The notes beneath the pieces are model-generated. The model saw only the letters and a program-made list of their open reading frames with translations. It was not told the origin of the DNA and made no database searches. Positions 9,063-17,485 of a stretch of 64,000 nucleotides of DNA are shown in pieces. Position 1 is the first letter of the stretch; the number at the start of each line of letters is the position of its first letter. This DNA is from Colletotrichum lupini (Eukaryota > Ascomycota > Sordariomycetes > Glomerellales > Glomerellaceae): the NCBI RefSeq assembly GCF_023278565.1, contig NC_064678.1:4650001-4714000 (forward strand). Direction: 5' to 3'. The translations under genes were made by a program, and so were the position numbers.

Positions 9063-12000
9063 ATGTCCTCCCGTACAATGGCCCTCAAGCCTCTTCTTTG
9101 GACACTCTCACTCATACTACCGGCCTCCCTCACCACGGCGACGTCGTTTAACCTGTCGAGCGAGATTACGCGTTTCGTACCAACGTGTGCCCGCGAATGC
9201 TTCCGTTCTCATTTGACTGCCAACTACGACCTCTCCACCTGCGGCAGTGCTCCCACTCTACAATGTCTGTGTGCCAATGTTGGCTTCTCAGGCCTCACTT
9301 TAGGGGAGGGTGCTGTGCAGTGTATCGTCGCAGAGAAGGGCATAGGTTTCTGTCGCGAAAGTGATGCGCCGCGTACGTAAATCGCGTTCTTGATATCGAT
9401 CATGGCACGAACTCTAACAAGCAGTAGAGACTGTGATCGACGCAGCATACCTGATGTGCTCGAACCAACCGGGAGCTGTTCAGCCCACACACACAGCCAT
9501 CATTGCAACGTTGATTATTCCTTCCTCTGGAGGTATCATCCTCGTTCCCCCAAGGACAACCACAAGGGCCACCTTATCAACATCGACGAGCCATCTCACG
9601 ACTTCGATTCCGACGACTCTTATCTCGGCAACAGGCACACCGTCCATCCCAAATACGTCTACGACGTTGACTACCTCAACTGTACCTCAGGCTTCTACTA
9701 CGGATAGCATTGTTACACCACCGCCATTGCCGTCATCCTCCACAGCGACACCTTCCGCATCCGCAACTGTAATCCCAGGAGCTGAGGGCGCTGACGCCGG
9801 CACCTCCAAGAGCTTGGGCACCGCTCAAGTGGCAGGTCTCGCAGTCGGTATTGCAGCTGCCCTCGGGATTGCCATCCTCGCCATATGCTTCGCCCGCCGC
9901 AAGCGCAGAAAGGACTATCCGGATGAAAAGACGGGCTTCTTCCCCGTGCGAGAGAAGGACTCTTGGGAATTCCACCCGCAAGAGGGCCCCGCCAATATCT
10001 TTCACATTTCCCCGCCTGTTCACCATGCGCAATCCCCTTCTCCGCCACCGTTACGCCAGCCCCCGGCGGCGCGTACCCGGACAAGCGGTCGCATGAGCTG
10101 GTGGCCCGGCGCGATCGGCCTTGCCGTCTCCCGGCCTGAGAGCACATCAGCTGCCTACCGTCCATCACCTCAGGCGCAGAACCGCCCAACGTCACGTCTC
10201 CTCCCAGCCAAGCCTTCTCTCTCGTCGCCAAAGCCGGTACTTTCCCTCAAGATTCCCGAGATAGACCTCACACCGTCATCGCTCCCTCGGGCAGACCAAA
10301 GCGGATCTGCACCGACAAATTCCCAAATTTTCAAGACGGCCAAGCTCACAGCGCCTCCAAAGAGCCACTACAATGCCCGCGAAAGCACAATGACGGAATT
10401 TGAAGAGGACGGCGCTATCACCTCGGCGCGCTCGGCTCGCTCAAACAACATTTGGAGACCGCCCTCGGCAACAGTGGGAAGCAATAACAACGTTCCCAAG
10501 TCTGCCACGTACTACGTAGCTGACAAGAACGGCAATTGGGTCCTAGGGGACCCCAAGAGCGCCACGCACATGGCACAGATCGCCGAGCTCGATGCGTCGG
10601 GTGCGAGCCAGGGTGGTGGCGCCAAAGCGAAGCCCTCCTATGCTGAGTCTGCCATGCTCGCTGCCACGGCCACGACTGCGGGCATGGGCCACGGAGCCGG
10701 AAGCCCCGTTGCTCCCTCCGGTCCCCGGATGATGCCACCACCCCCAGTTCTTCTTCCGCCTGTCGAGATCGCTCGAACCGGTGCCCTTGCCGCCCCGCCC
10801 GCGGCTCACCAATCCCGAACCTCGAGCGTCTACTCGCCTGCCACCACGAGACCCAATACAGTTATCCAGAACAGCGCTCTTCCCCCGTCTGCTGGAGCTC
10901 CCCACCCGGTGCCGAGCATGTCGTTCTCTCATCCCGAACCTCCACGCCGCCGGAGTAACTCTCTCGGCCGCCGCAGCTCATCAAAGTCGAAATCCACAGG
11001 GTCCGCCACTGCTCCTTTCCCTCCTCCCGCTGCATCAATATCTACAGGCGCTGGGAACCCACCGCATCGGTCTGACAGCCATGACTCCCACGCGTCAGCC
11101 ACGACAATCGCGTCCTCCGTCGCGAGCGAGGCCGAGCCCGTGATTGAGCAAAGCGGTCTCTCCCCTGTCGTGGAGTCACCTGCCTCAAGGGGATCCCCAA
11201 ATGTCGGACACTCACCCGTCTCCTACCCCGTCATCCCCGGCCGCACCAGCTCCAAGCCTGGCTACAACAACCTCCGCCTGCTGGCTCCTCCCGCTCGGCC
11301 TTTTGCTGCGTTTCCCGCCGGACAGCCCAGTCCCACGCTCGGGATGATGCAGCAACAGCAGCAGCAGCAACAGTCCCGAAACGGACTGTACATGGCCAGC
11401 CACGACGTCCCCCGTAAACCCGTCGGCCCTCGCCCCCGCCCAGCCGGTCCCGTCACCGACCCCAGCAGGATCGCCACCGGGTCGCCCTCGCTCCGCCTCG
11501 TGACCCCGTCTCCTCCCCGTTCTTCCTCCTCCGATAACAGGAACAATTCCCAAGGCCTCCAGCAAGAGCCCCACTGGGAGCCCGCGCAAACCCAGAGGCC
11601 GCCGCAGATGAGACCCCTCTACCCGCCGCCTCTGAACCCCAAACGGCCCAGGCTCGAGCGCAACGACGACATCCACCCGCAACCGCAGGCCGCGCAAGTC
11701 CAACAGGCGCCATTTCTTAACCAGGAGCCTCAGTCGACTTCGGTCCATAAGGCGCTCTGGGGGAACCTCCCTCCTCGAGCCCAGCAGCAGCAACAGCAGC
11801 AACAGCAGCAACAGCAGCAACAACAGCAGCAACAACAGCAGCAGCAGAAGCCAGCTCCCTACTCTGGTCTCCCATCACAGCAGCAGCCTCAACCTCCTCA
11901 GCAGAGACAGCAGCAGCCCCAGCAACAGCTGAACCAACAATCCTTCCAACAACGTCAACGCCGTCTCTCACAGCAACAACCAAGCCGCCAATCCATCCAA

Positions 12001-12498
12001 CAACCCCTCCCCCCCAAATCCCCGCCCCCAAAACAGCCCCTGCCCGAAAGACCATCCTCCGCCTCCCCATCACCGCACCACATCGCAACGCAAGCCATCC
12101 GACCAACCTCGACAATCCTACAACCACCACCACCGCCAACAATCCGCCCCCCCTCCGCCTCAACAACCGCCTCCCCCACCGTCGCAACCCCCTCAACAAC
12201 ATCCTCCCTCCTGTCCAAACGCCTCGGCTCCGAACGCGCCGCCGCCCTCATCCTCCCCAACGCCGGCCTCCGCCACAGTCCCAACTGGAGACCCGTTCGC
12301 CCAGGGGGTAACGGAGACGGAACGGATATGCTCCTCTCCCCCGACGCCGCTCTCTTCCCTACACCTCCCGGGTTTCCATCCCGGACTGGCGGTGGTGGCG
12401 GCGCCGGGCGCGGTGGTCACTTGCCTGCTACGCCGACCTGGCAGCCGAGGCTGACGCCTACTCGACGGGGCGATGACTTGTTTTTAAATGTGCAGTGA
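9063..12498 (+). CDS. CFEM-like single-pass membrane protein with polyQ/Pro-rich cytoplasmic tail
   Basis: Exons 9063-9372 and 9425-12498 give 1,127 aa. Residues 1 to about 28 form a signal peptide (LLWTLSLILPASLTTATS). A CFEM-like module follows with eight Cys in the order PTC, REC, STC, QC-LC, QC, FC, LMC; the intron falls between the seventh and eighth Cys. Next is a Ser/Thr-rich stalk of the kind that is O-mannosylated, a transmembrane helix (VAGLAVGIAAALGIAILAIC), a basic stop-transfer RRKRRK, then about 900 residues of low-complexity Pro/Ser/Gln-rich tail with two glutamine runs. CFEM proteins act in fungal surface sensing, adhesion or haem uptake; which applies here cannot be told. A second intron may end exactly at this ATG (9009-9062). 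With it, translation could start at 8985 and add MKDGTFIQ, but the signal peptide fits the 9063 or 9078 ATG better. Confidence 0.85.
11350..11373 (+). repeat. Short polyglutamine tract (8 Gln, CAG/CAA)
   Basis: Mixed CAG and CAA codons inside the cytoplasmic tail of the CFEM protein. The tract follows MM and precedes SRNG. Confidence 0.9.
11782..11847 (+). repeat. Long polyglutamine tract (about 22 Gln, CAG/CAA)
   Basis: Uninterrupted Gln codons, CAG and CAA mixed, followed by further Gln/Pro-rich sequence to about 12000. Such trinucleotide runs are often length-polymorphic. Confidence 0.9.
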
Positions 12499-12982: not shown

Positions 12983-15900
12983 TCATTCTTCCTTGACCAT
13001 TTGACCTCTGAGGCATTCTCGTTCACTGTAGACATCCTCAGGCAATCGGGGCCGATGCCCACCTGACATGATGTCCTCCAAGGAGGTCATCTCAATAGAA
13101 GAGTGTCCACTTCCATCGCTTGTCGCACTTCGATGGTTTCGCCGCGAACGTGAGGTCCGGTTATGCTGGCTTCGCTGGCTCCGCTGACTCCGTTGGCTTC
13201 TTTGACTCCTCTGACTACCTCTTCTCACAAGGTCTTTGACATCGTCAACGATATCACTCATGACATCGCTGATTTGGTCGTCAAGTGCATCTATCCCAGC
13301 ATCGAAAGCTGCTCGGTTCAGGTGCTGGTTAGCGTCTATGAGTTTGTTCCTCTTCCTGATCTCCGTGAAACGTGACAGACTACCGAGCTCGAGGACGTTG
13401 ACTCGTCGTGTTTTGCTGGTGGGATTACCAACAATAAACGGACGCCATGGCTCTTCTTCAGCGATGACATCTTTGTCGTCCATCACCCCAGTTGGCATCG
13501 AGTCGCGGCGTTTGATAGATTCTCTGCGCGCAGCTGTCCACCTATCCATCGCCTCGGTCTTGCTCTCCGGAATGATCGTGACCTCCTTGAAACGAATCAG
13601 AGTCAATGTCAGTAGCATTGTCAAAATGAACAAGATTCCAGCTACAACTCCCGTTGCTGCTCTCTGACCGAGGTTACGCTGGGCCATACCGCCTAGTGCA
13701 GTTGCTCCAGCAGCGAATATGAACCCCAGGGTGTGACAAACGGCAAATCCTGCAGTCACGCGAGGGTAGGCGGAGTAATTTTTCCTCTTCTGTGCGTTGT
13801 CTGAATTCCCCCGAGGCCGACCAGTCATACCAGACTGTAGATCCGAAGTGTCAAAGGTTTCCATGATGAGTCCATTGCATTCTGAGATTGCCAGGCACGA
13901 AAGAAAGCCGATCGCAGCGGCGACAATGGCAGGCGCAATCGGATGCATTGGTGGGCCAGTCGAAACCAATGTGTAGACGATCCCAGCCAGTGGGAGGCCA
14001 ATGGCGAAAATGGATCGGCGAAGAAGGTGAGATGTCCATGTTACTTGTTTGTCGAATGTCATACGACTGGTGTTTACCTGGGTGTGTCTCGCTCTGGAGA
14101 AGTAACTGGCCTTCTGGAATGGGATAGCAGCGAGTGCGCCAAATGCTATCGCAGATACCATGAGCCCGACAAAGGGTGACCGCATTCGGTAAAATCTTGA
14201 AGTCAGGGATCCCAGCAAGACGATGATGAGAACCACCTGGGCGTAAATCCAACCAGAGTAAATGGCCATGACAGCAAAACCGGGTTGTCGAAGCATCTCA
14301 AAGCAGAGTGCGACACCATGATACAATTCCTCGCCCCACCACTTGGGTCCAGTTTTAACACGATGCATCATGATTTCGCCGCGAGCAACACGCCGGGAGA
14401 CATCCGTGCCAGTTCTGACTTCCACGACTGATCTTCGGAACGCCGAACGACGCACCTCTGGACATAGAGTGTTCAGCAAAAGGGCTATGGCGGTCAGGGC
14501 GATACTGATATAAAACCCGGAGTCTGGTGGGAGTTGATCGATCACCGCGGCGCCAATGAGGAAACCAAAGCCAAGGGATGCAATGTAGCAGCATGTCCAG
14601 ATACCGAGCCAGACACCCATACCACCTCCGTGCCTCCTTACATCAAAGTCATCCACAACCTCTTGATGAGGATTGCTGCTCATGAGGGATGCGCCGAAAA
14701 GGTCTGTAAGTATTGAGTGGAAATTCATGCTTGCGAAACCGAGGCAGATACCCATGAAGCCTCGCGGAACCAACAACACCATTCTCTATCCAGTGAGGCT
14801 GTAAAATCTTTGAGCGCTGACAGCCAAAGCCTGAGGGAAAAGAAGTGGCATGGATAGAATCAGCCCAGTCGTGATGTATGGCTTGCGCCCATGAACCAGA
14901 GGAAGTGGCCAGCAAAAGAATGTGGGAATTGCCATCCCAAGAAAGCAGCCCACATTGCCGTTGATGATCGAGTGGCTTGTGTCTAGGATGTAGTATTGCA
15001 GTGAGGGTACTAGGCCGGCATAGATACCGACAATCATACCGATCAGGGCCGTACTGATGCAAGCCACAGCCGCGATGGCTCTCTTTCGGACTGGTGACCA
15101 GTCCCGAGCAATGGGTTGACGTCGTTTCGACTTGGCTAGACTGAATGCTTGTATACCACGGAGACTGACATGAGACTTGCCTCGTAGGCTGATCCCTCGT
15201 GGATTGCGGATCGGACGGCCGCCCAAGTCCTCCTGAGGAAGATTGTCCTCGCCTGTGTTGCGGGATAAGAAGGGTACCCGTTTCGTGCTTGCTCGAGGTC
15301 GAGTTGGCTCGCTGCTTCCTTGAGCTTGATTTCGAGTCGGGAAGTTGACTGCAGAGGAGTCATTGGATCCGTCCATGCTAGACTCTGAATCTGTCGGGAG
15401 TTGATCGACAATCTGCTTCGGCTTTGTGCGCTTCGGTTTCTTTACGCCCTTGTTTCTCTTCCTGCTCGAAACTCTGTCTGGCACAGGTCCAGCTTGCCGG
15501 GATCGCGATTTGCGTCTACGTTTGGTTTTCTTGACAACTGAACTCTTCTTACGACCAAGCATGCTCTCGAGCTCTACGGTCTGCGGAGTGAGAGAAATAG
15601 TACGGTAGAGATTGTCTACCGCACGGATTTCAGGCCGCCCGGAATGTGGAAACGTAGCAGCGCGTTTGTTTTGTGGTCCTTTTGCTTTACCGTCATCATC
15701 CAAGTCGATGTCAGAGAACTGAGAGGCGTAATCATAGGGTGCCGCTTCCTTTGAGACAGCATGCGGAGATTGTATAGCCTCTGGAGATTTTGCCTCTTCG
15801 TCGTCAGCAACCCGAGAAGCCAGTGCCAAAGCTTCTTGAAGGAGACGTTCTAGCTCCCCGAAAGTGCTTTGGAAGAAATTCTGCTCAACTTCGGTAGTTG

Positions 15901-17485
15901 GAAGCGTCGGTTGACGGGTCATCTTCCGCGACGCTGGACTTTGTTCCTGAGAGTTCTTCAAAGAAGCATAGGACGCTCTTTTTGCCTTGGATGGTCTTTC
16001 CGTCAACTTGGCCGTATGAGATTCGGGATTCTTCAGTAGATGCCGGAGCCACTGAGCAGTTCGCTTGTAGTCTATAGTGCTTGCTCGGGAGCGAGTTGTA
16101 CTCTCCAAACGTGGCTTAGTGACTCTGCCGGGCCCCTCGGTTGCCGACTCATCTGATCCGACAGCAAAATAGGCATCCTCGTCTTTTTGGTTGCCGTTAT
16201 CAGATTCGTCACTGAAGGGCCGAACTTTTGACACTCTTTGATGTCCAGCATGATGATTCAGCTCAGGGGGTTCCTGGGCAAAGGGTCGGACTTTGGAGAC
16301 CGGTATATTGGTTAGCTTGTCCTTGCTCTCTTTGATTTCGATTTCTGTCGGTCCATTGATATCCCCTTCGGGCAACAAATGTTCCTTGGCTGGGTCAAAC
16401 GGCCGGACCTTGGAGACTCCAGGAGGAGATTGCTGTTGGCGACGTATATTGGGGTACTCAAAGGTTGGTAGATTGAACGCTGGCCGAACTTTCATGGCAT
16501 GGCTGTGTCCATCGTGCTTTGGGACAGTGACTTCGACTGTAGAGAGACAAAGATCATCTCCAGTCATAGCTCTGCGCACCTTGGCAAGAACAATTTCAGC
16601 CTCCGAAGAGGGAGATGACGAAGCAGAAGAAGAAGAGCTAGATGTCCTGTTCTCAAGTTGCTGTGGAACAGGTTGTCCAGGCACACCGGTGTCGCAGAAG
16701 TCAGCACCTTTGAGAATACCACGGTGGTGAACCTTAGTATGTGACTCATCCGGATGGATCAGAGGATCAACGCAGATGGTTTCCCGGGGAAAGTAAGGGT
16801 CGACGTTGGTCGTGGTCTCCATGAGACGTTGACTGACAGTAGGTGCAGGATTGTCTTGCATCTGGGAAGGCGAGTACTTTCTCGATGGAATGGCAATCTT
16901 TGCCTTGTTCTCAAAGCCTTTTATGTCTTCTCGTGGGTTCTGCAATTGGCTTTCGCTGACTTGTCGACTAAGGACCGGGGGCACGGGTAAATCTTTGTCA
17001 ACCAACAAGGGGCGCCCGGAAGCGGTCTTGAGGAGTGCATGTCGAAATTTACAACTTTTCGCCGAAGAAAAGCTTGAAGCGACGTCCTTTTCGGGTTTCT
17101 TCAGGGATATGTCCATCATAGAAGGTCGAGCGCTAGGAAGAGGTGTGTCCTCGAAGTCTCCTCTGGTTGCGTTGGATGGCTCTCGATTTCGATGTACGAT
17201 ATCTTTGGTCGGATGGAAGAAGTTGGATAACATCGCAGGCTTCTCCTCCTTTGGTTTGGGATTCAGTGCAAGCTCGGCCTGTGAGGGGCAGCAGAAACCG
17301 AGTCGGAAAGTGGTCGGCGGCGAATCTGAAGATCGAGAACTGACACTACGAGGTCTGCTGCCAAGCTTTTCTGCGGAATTGTAGCGTCGCAGAGCCGTTT
17401 GCTTGTAAGTCGACGTTCTGGGGTCCGTCAGCCGCTGGACTTCGGTCGGTGGCGTCAGAGACCGAGTCCTTGTGGCCTTAGACAT
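12983..17485 (-). pseudogene. Giant MFS transporter gene interrupted by one in-frame TAG (pseudogene or edited gene)
   Basis: A single 1,500-codon frame starting ATG at 17485 (MSKATRTRSLTPP), broken only by TAG at 14786-14788 (codon 900). Residues 1 to about 795 are disordered, Ser/Lys/Arg-rich and probably cytoplasmic. They carry a repeated KVRPxF/SKVRPF motif at about 330, 356, 395 and 415. From about 800 comes a 12-helix major-facilitator core. Helices 1-3 end ...LLFPQALAVSAQRFYSLTG, then the stop, then RMVLLVPRGFMGICLGF (helix 4) and LFGASLMSSNPHQEVVDDFD, a strong signature of the fungal MFS family. The C-terminal cytoplasmic tail has RSQ repeats. In that family a Trp-Arg pair precedes helix 4 (from memory), so TGG-to-TAG is the likely change. 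There is no other disablement in 4.5 kb. Substrate is unknown. Without rescue the product would have only three helices. Confidence 0.8.
13166..13215 (-). repeat. Tandem 9-nt repeat encoding (RSQ)n in the MFS C-terminal tail
   Basis: Five to six near-perfect 9-nt units encode RSQRSQRSQ in the cytoplasmic tail after helix 12. The units have diverged at third positions. Confidence 0.8.

What the first reader, a model, noticed from the sequence alone, without database searches (positions are those of the whole stretch)
14786..14788. Single in-frame TAG at a conserved Trp position in a 1,500-codon MFS gene: candidate A-to-I mRNA-editing rescue
Seen: the minus-strand frame is open from 17485 to 12983 except for this one TAG, lying between helix 3 (...LAVSAQRFYSLTG) and helix 4 (RMVLLVPRGFMG). 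Both halves are intact over 899 and 600 codons, so the lesion is either very young or tolerated. No intron fits: the only upstream GT would give about 36 nt, with a poor donor. Known: Fusarium, Neurospora and Sordaria edit A to I in mRNA during sexual development with preference for U before the A, and some genes with a premature UAG are restored to UGG (Trp) this way. Inference: this gene is such a case, making full-length transporter only in fruiting bodies. Alternatives are strain-specific loss, a sequencing error or stop readthrough.
Basis: partly seen in the sequence, partly recalled or inferred. Interest (0 to 1): 0.82.

Follow-up and report, generated by a model that had tools for sequence, protein, structure and literature searches.

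The report
Conserved in-frame stop, probably RNA-edited
A transporter gene of an anthracnose fungus has a stop signal in its middle that relatives in its genus appear to share while keeping the rest of the gene intact, which points to correction in the messenger RNA, a process known from related fungi, rather than to a broken gene.

Summary
In detail: one in-frame TAG (14788-14786, minus strand, codon 900) in an otherwise open 1,500-codon MFS gene. The genome is a Colletotrichum of the acutatum complex, by size probably C. lupini. The lesion is not young: all 17 readable rows of the Colletotrichum clade, 12 named species among them, end before this codon or skip 36 nt ending on it. Most other relatives have Trp there. 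Sequence after the stop is as conserved as in stop-free relatives (134 of 137 conserved columns kept). Other lineages have models that end exactly at the same Trp or at a Trp two codons on; the fewest state changes on a weakly resolved tree are 9-11. The family is probably that of Fusarium graminearum AMD1, whose UAG, elsewhere in the gene, is edited to UGG in 97.6% of perithecial transcripts (PMC5496914). Sexual-stage A-to-I editing is the best explanation (0.8). Missing: RNA evidence, relatives' DNA, a direct comparison with FgAmd1, and a sexual stage (C. lupini is described as asexual). The predicted hairpin is no better than chance. New member of a known kind, in a new genus at a new site.

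The parts
12983..17485 (-). whole MFS gene frame, 1,500 codons plus terminator, one internal stop
14786..14788 (-). in-frame TAG at the position of a conserved Trp (W1); the A is at 14787
   Evidence: only internal stop of the frame; Trp in 152 of 203 rows
14789..17485 (-). N half, 899 codons: long region without a confident Pfam domain, then helices 1-3 (from about residue 800)
12986..14785 (-). C half, 600 codons: rest of the MFS domain and a C-terminal tail
   Evidence: MFS_1 E 9.1e-07, 28.5 bits, below the curated cut-off of 33.4; one match in the whole genome, itself
14786..14821 (-). 36-nt stretch GTCAGC...TAG that gene models of six Colletotrichum species leave out as if it were an intron

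Best explanation
This is the Colletotrichum member of the AMD1 family of ascomycete MFS proteins, with a long-maintained premature UAG in place of a conserved Trp between helices 3 and 4. In ascospore-forming tissue the ADAT-type mRNA-editing complex (Tad2-Tad3 with Ame1 in F. graminearum) is expected to turn the A into inosine, so that the codon is read as UGG and the full-length transporter is made; elsewhere only an 899-residue product with three helices would result. Shown here: the stop, its Trp position, its apparent conservation across the genus, constraint after the stop, recurrence of stops at Trp codons of this loop. Inferred: that the bypass is A-to-I editing, that it belongs to the sexual stage, and that the protein serves ascus maturation and spore discharge as FgAmd1 does.
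For: 17 of 17 readable rows of the Colletotrichum clade are in the stop class: 10 database models and the window end there, 6 models skip exactly 36 nt ending there. The window keeps 134 of 137 conserved columns after the stop. With a strict anchor, 38 of 220 proteins end within 95 residues of it: 14 before W1, 21 before W2, 3 elsewhere. UAG at Trp is the stop that A-to-I editing can turn into the conserved residue. The kinds of mis-annotation (end at the stop, small false intron, start at a later Met) are those described for the edited gene CHE1 (PMC11169179, passages). Context fits 4 of 6 preferred positions: U at -1, purines at +1, +3, +4 (PMC9600606, section 6; site). AMD1 precedent: UAG to UGG in 97.6% of perithecial transcripts, uneditable allele does not complement (PMC5496914). 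Length and helix-1 position of the F. pseudograminearum homologue P0095 fit AMD1.
Against: No RNA data. C. lupini is called asexual with no sexual morph observed (passages). At the +/-30 nt used in the literature the A is not in a hairpin loop; it is at +/-15, 20 and 25, where 57%, 50% and 40% of random A's of the gene are too, and in +/-60 and +/-100 folds it tends to be paired. -2 A and +2 A are non-preferred. U at -1 and G at +1 follow from any UAG. The FgAmd1 sequence was not compared, its UAG is at codon 211, not here, and helix 1 at 618 in both the 1314-aa P0095 and the published 1386-aa protein agrees only if the published numbers refer to the uncorrected model or the extra length lies elsewhere. 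In relatives the stop codon itself was not seen as DNA. RID-type methylase and SPO22 matches of this genome have no internal stop, although their F. graminearum orthologues are edited premature-stop genes (PMC4817773).
Confidence: 0.8

Rival explanations
1. Ribosomal readthrough of the UAG, programmed or leaky, gives the full-length protein without any RNA change.
For: It would also explain an open, constrained downstream half and would need no sexual stage.
Against: The codon is followed by AGA AUG, not by the CUA or CARYYA contexts that I recall for efficient readthrough. Stops sit at Trp codons (35 of the 38 near ends), although readthrough would allow other codons. Caution: if nonsense changes arise only by transition, 4 of 9 possible ones around the loop are at Trp anyway.
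Confidence: 0.08
2. In this clonal species the gene is now unused: the stop was once corrected in sexual ancestors, and the intact frame is inherited with too little time for decay.
For: C. lupini is described as asexual. The stop is shared with C. salicis, for which homothallism is reported (P0003).
Against: No second lesion in 1,499 codons. It explains the present use only, not the conservation across the genus.
Confidence: 0.06
3. A 36-nt intron ending in this TAG is spliced out in frame, removing the stop.
For: Six database models in the Colletotrichum clade are built this way, and the stretch is GT...TAG and in frame.
Against: The 11 residues so removed resemble those that Trp-bearing relatives keep, and they are nearly constant in the 10 models that end here. 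36 nt is shorter than fungal introns that I recall, and the donor GTCAGC is poor. False introns over edited stops are documented (PMC4817773 and PMC11169179, passages).
Confidence: 0.04
4. Two separate proteins are made, the second from a later Met.
For: Databases hold split models side by side, e.g. CTA2_4092/4093 and CCHL11_05333/05334.
Against: The first Met after the site differs between lineages. Reinitiation after 899 codons is unlikely (general knowledge). Many relatives encode one continuous protein.
Confidence: 0.02

Closest known systems
AMD1 (FGRRES_10094) of Fusarium graminearum
   Same: Large MFS protein with a long N-terminal region; a UAG inside the frame, mis-annotated as intron, edited to UGG in perithecia; orthologues reported across Sordariomycetes, Dothideomycetes and Leotiomycetes (PMC5496914, parts 1-3 of 5 and passages)
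   Different: Its UAG is at codon 211 in the N-terminal region; here it is at codon 900 between helices 3 and 4. Orthology is inferred through P0095, not by direct comparison
PUK1 / NCU03242 / FVEG_01191
   Same: An edited UAG at Trp codons that lies at different neighbouring codons in different species (PMC4817773, section 16)
   Different: A kinase gene; its orthologue in this genome was not identified
CHE1 of F. graminearum
   Same: A conserved UAG and the same kinds of annotation error in relatives (PMC11169179, passages)
   Different: A zinc-finger factor edited in hyphae; conservation shown in closely related Fusarium species

Membership tests
Premature-stop-correction (PSC) edited genes of Sordariomycetes | In-frame UAG in an otherwise intact conserved frame | tested here: met
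Premature-stop-correction (PSC) edited genes of Sordariomycetes | Position is Trp in relatives without the stop | tested here: met
   Trp in 152 rows, against 8 rows with another state (7 Tyr or Phe, 1 model lacking the stretch)
Premature-stop-correction (PSC) edited genes of Sordariomycetes | Constraint kept after the stop | tested here: met
   134 of 137 conserved columns kept; 86-89% identity after the stop within Colletotrichum
Premature-stop-correction (PSC) edited genes of Sordariomycetes | U at -1 and purines at +1 and +3 | tested here: met
   18 of 1,148 A's examined have this; U and G are given by UAG itself
Premature-stop-correction (PSC) edited genes of Sordariomycetes | A in a predicted hairpin loop (a preference: over 62% of sites at +/-30 nt, PMC9600606) | tested here: inconclusive
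   not at +/-30 or 40; yes at +/-15, 20, 25, with controls of 57, 50 and 40%
Premature-stop-correction (PSC) edited genes of Sordariomycetes | A-to-G in cDNA of sexual tissue, A in DNA and hyphal RNA | not testable with these tools
   no RNA reads held
Premature-stop-correction (PSC) edited genes of Sordariomycetes | Editing machinery (Tad2, Tad3, Ame1) present | not tested
   not searched for in this genome
AMD1 orthologues | Sequence orthology to FgAmd1 | tested here: inconclusive
   FgAmd1 not held; P0095 fits by length (1314 against 1386) and helix 1 at 618, with the numbering caveat
AMD1 orthologues | MFS domain | tested here: inconclusive
   MFS_1 at E 9.1e-07 but 28.5 bits, under Pfam's cut-off of 33.4; relatives such as P0079 pass it (36.7 bits)
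AMD1 orthologues | UAG at the same codon as in F. graminearum (not required of an orthologue) | tested here: not met
   the only stop is codon 900
Readthrough genes | Efficient readthrough context after the stop (motifs recalled) | tested here: not met
   UAG AGA AUG

The most novel reading that the evidence does not exclude
AMD1 is a recurrent editing lock: in separate Sordariomycete lineages a UAG has become fixed at Trp codons of this one gene (codon 211 in F. graminearum, W1 in Colletotrichum and three other lineages, W2 in Coniochaeta and Sordariales relatives) and is kept for long periods, because a transporter that is off outside the ascus is favoured or costs nothing. The intact lock in a supposedly asexual C. 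lupini would then hint at cryptic sex or at editing outside the sexual cycle.
Probability: 0.35. Interest if true: 0.75.

Novelty: new member of a known kind. Interest (0 to 1): 0.6.

Why it matters
Six papers of the library hold both 'Colletotrichum' and 'A-to-I RNA editing'; no title or abstract start among them reports editing in that genus, and I read passages of one (PMC12884345). A site conserved across the genus gives a one-amplicon test for editing there. Repeated stops at Trp codons of one gene bear on the open question whether such editing is adaptive or merely tolerated. The case also warns that gene models of this family are often split or given false introns.

Tried and rejected
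Sequencing error or strain-specific null: rejected, the same end point occurs in independent genomes. Recent decay: rejected by conservation after the stop. Hairpin as evidence: tried with a control and dropped. Further premature-stop genes in this genome: methylase (4 matches) and SPO22 (1 match) had none inside. Of 136 kinase matches, 7 held a single TAG and no other stop; I looked at 6 of these 7, and each TAG sits at an exon edge, which I read as intron acceptors. Kinase rows with several stops were not inspected and the PUK1 orthologue was not identified. DNA of relatives: one scan of viral contigs gave none; the metagenome cap was zero and no scan was tried. The first conserved-column count used a faulty filter (1 row) and was replaced (then 54). 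Key papers on restorative editing (PMC10776026, PMC10041177) are not held, so an earlier notice of this site there cannot be excluded.

Left out of counts: each protein search lists only the best 120 (of 544, 440 and 585 hits), so all counts are for 293 listed proteins. C. orchidophilum P0016, C. plurivorum P0017, C. karsti P0120 and C. orbiculare P0125 have no readable site. P0072 ends one codon before W1 and was put in no stop class. The looser anchor gives 22 models ending before W2; the strict one gives 21.

Full report
WHAT IS THERE. The minus-strand frame from 17485 to 12983 is open except for one TAG at codon 900 of 1,500 (14788-14786); the terminator is TGA. The N half (899 codons) has a long region without a confident Pfam domain and then three membrane helices. 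The C half (600 codons) matches MFS_1 at E = 9.1e-07, below Pfam's curated cut-off, and has one match in the whole genome, itself. The window is G000:C5:4650001-4714000 of a 63.44-Mb assembly in 12 contigs. The closest listed protein is from C. paranaense, 98% over residues 640-899. C. lupini assemblies are reported at 54.5 to 63.4 Mb (PMC11645255, passages), so C. lupini is likely but not proven.

THE STOP IS OLD. Among the best 120 of 544 relatives of the N half, models of C. paranaense, C. fioriniae, C. salicis, C. incanum, C. tanaceti (two models) and C. chlorophyti, and three without a name (P0005, P0007, P0013), end exactly at the residue before this codon. Models of C. sublineola, C. 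navitas, C. falcatum, C. caudatum, C. shisoi and C. truncatum run on but lack exactly the 11 residues before it and the codon itself, as if a 36-nt intron ended on it. Such an acceptor needs AG at the end of that codon, so TAG is implied there, not read. On the tree the 17 rows of the Colletotrichum clade (SH-aLRT 97), window included, are all in the stop class. Four more named Colletotrichum models could not be read.

IT STANDS AT A TRYPTOPHAN. Of 203 aligned rows, 152 have Trp at the position, 21 are stop class at W1 (14 models, 6 skips, the window), 21 are stop class at W2, 8 are other (7 with Tyr or Phe, 1 model lacking the stretch) and 1 is too short. The residues just before the Trp resemble those of Colletotrichum, which argues that the 36 nt are coding.

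BOTH SIDES ARE CONSTRAINED. In 118 Trp-bearing relatives, 137 columns after the site are at least 97% one residue. The window keeps 134 of 137, six Colletotrichum models keep 134 or 135 of 137, and twelve separate C-half models, 11 of them paired with an N half that ends at the stop, keep from 105 of 110 to 136 of 136 aligned columns; Trp-bearing rows themselves keep 73% to 100%, median 100%. Within Colletotrichum (eight species) identity after the stop is 86-89%, in helices 1-3 before it 85-95%, in the C-terminal tail 69-84%, in the N-terminal region 52-65%. This is protein-level evidence; no dN/dS could be made.

IT RECURS. Outside Colletotrichum, P0074, P0100, P0107 and P0279 (no names) also end before W1, and 22 models, among them Coniochaeta ligniaria, C. 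hoffmannii, Apodospora peruviana, Rhypophila decipiens and Cercophora species, end before the Trp two codons on, W2. With a strict anchor, 38 of 220 proteins end within 95 residues of it: 14 before W1, 21 before W2, 3 elsewhere. Split halves lie side by side: consecutive locus tags in C. tanaceti, C. chlorophyti, C. ligniaria and Cercophora sp. LCS_1, and equal contig lengths, which suggest but do not prove one contig, for seven more pairs. The fewest changes of state on the tree are 4 for W1 and 7 for W2, or 4 and 5 when branches under SH-aLRT 90 are collapsed. The tree has 135 columns for 203 rows and cannot tell gain from reversal. As a chance yardstick, 22 of the 479 single-base nonsense changes possible in the gene are at Trp, but 22 of 115 if only transitions count, and 4 of 9 transitions in 140 codons around the loop; concentration at Trp is therefore telling but less so if transitions dominate.

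WHAT IT MOST LIKELY IS. F. graminearum AMD1 encodes a 1386-aa MFS protein; its UAG at 631-633, in a wrongly predicted intron, is edited to UGG in 97.6% of perithecial transcripts, the uneditable allele does not complement, and the protein sits on the ascus membrane and is needed for spore discharge (PMC5496914, parts 1-3 of 5). The F. pseudograminearum homologue of our gene, P0095, has 1314 aa and helix 1 at residue 618, where the published Amd1 MFS domain begins, and lacks about 60 residues near 155-215 that F. equiseti has. I take it as the same family with the stop elsewhere, codon 211 there and 900 here. One tension remains: if the missing residues lie before helix 1, the full-length protein should have helix 1 further on, so the numbers agree only if the paper numbered the uncorrected model. 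Shifted stops within one edited gene are known for PUK1 (PMC4817773, section 16), and the mis-annotations match those of CHE1 (PMC11169179, passages). The machinery named here is from PMC11156358 (parts 1-2 of 3) and PMC11087585 (passages). Fungal editing favours U at -1 and purines at +1, +3 and +4 (PMC9600606, section 6); the site fits 4 of 6 positions. Against conservation of single sites in general, PMC5381528 (passages) reports that individual editing sites are rarely shared between F. graminearum and Sordaria.

AGAINST. There are no RNA data. The hairpin preference is not supported at +/-30 nt, and where the A does lie in a hairpin loop the control shows that to be common. C. lupini is called asexual, so editing may not happen in this species now; C. 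salicis, reported as homothallic, has the same end point (P0003). I found no second such gene here but looked at few, and two orthologue types edited in F. graminearum showed no stop in the matched domain. Relatives' stop codons were not seen as DNA.

VERDICT. Observation confirmed. Editing is the best explanation (0.8), ahead of readthrough (0.08), disuse in a clonal species (0.06), a 36-nt intron (0.04) and two proteins (0.02). It is a new member of a known kind: new genus, new site, and an unusual degree of recurrence.

Noticed in passing
window 9418-12498 (+): Open stretch of 1,026 codons, neighbour of the gene, with a long run of glutamines; several overlapping frames beside it are low-complexity shadows.
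   Followed up: no
window about 13165-13220 (-): Serine-glutamine-arginine repeated in tandem in the C-terminal tail of the MFS protein, absent in some relatives.
   Followed up: no
P0072 (617 aa, unnamed): Ends one codon before the conserved Trp; a different stop, a contig end or a neighbouring edited codon cannot be told apart.
   Followed up: no
P0128, P0155, P0167, P0185, P0188 (Verticillium albo-atrum, Metarhizium rileyi, Neonectria punicea, Fusarium fujikuroi, Stylonectria norvegica): C-half-only models starting at a Met after the site; their N halves were not seen, so they may hide further stops or be mere start errors.
   Followed up: no
P0074 and P0078; P0116 and P0160; P0097 among Coniochaeta-like rows: Near relatives that differ in having Trp or a stop at the same codon, useful for telling gain from reversal.
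   Followed up: partly
P0190 (Podospora aff. communis): Model lacks the stretch around the site, much like the 36-nt skip of Colletotrichum models.
   Followed up: no
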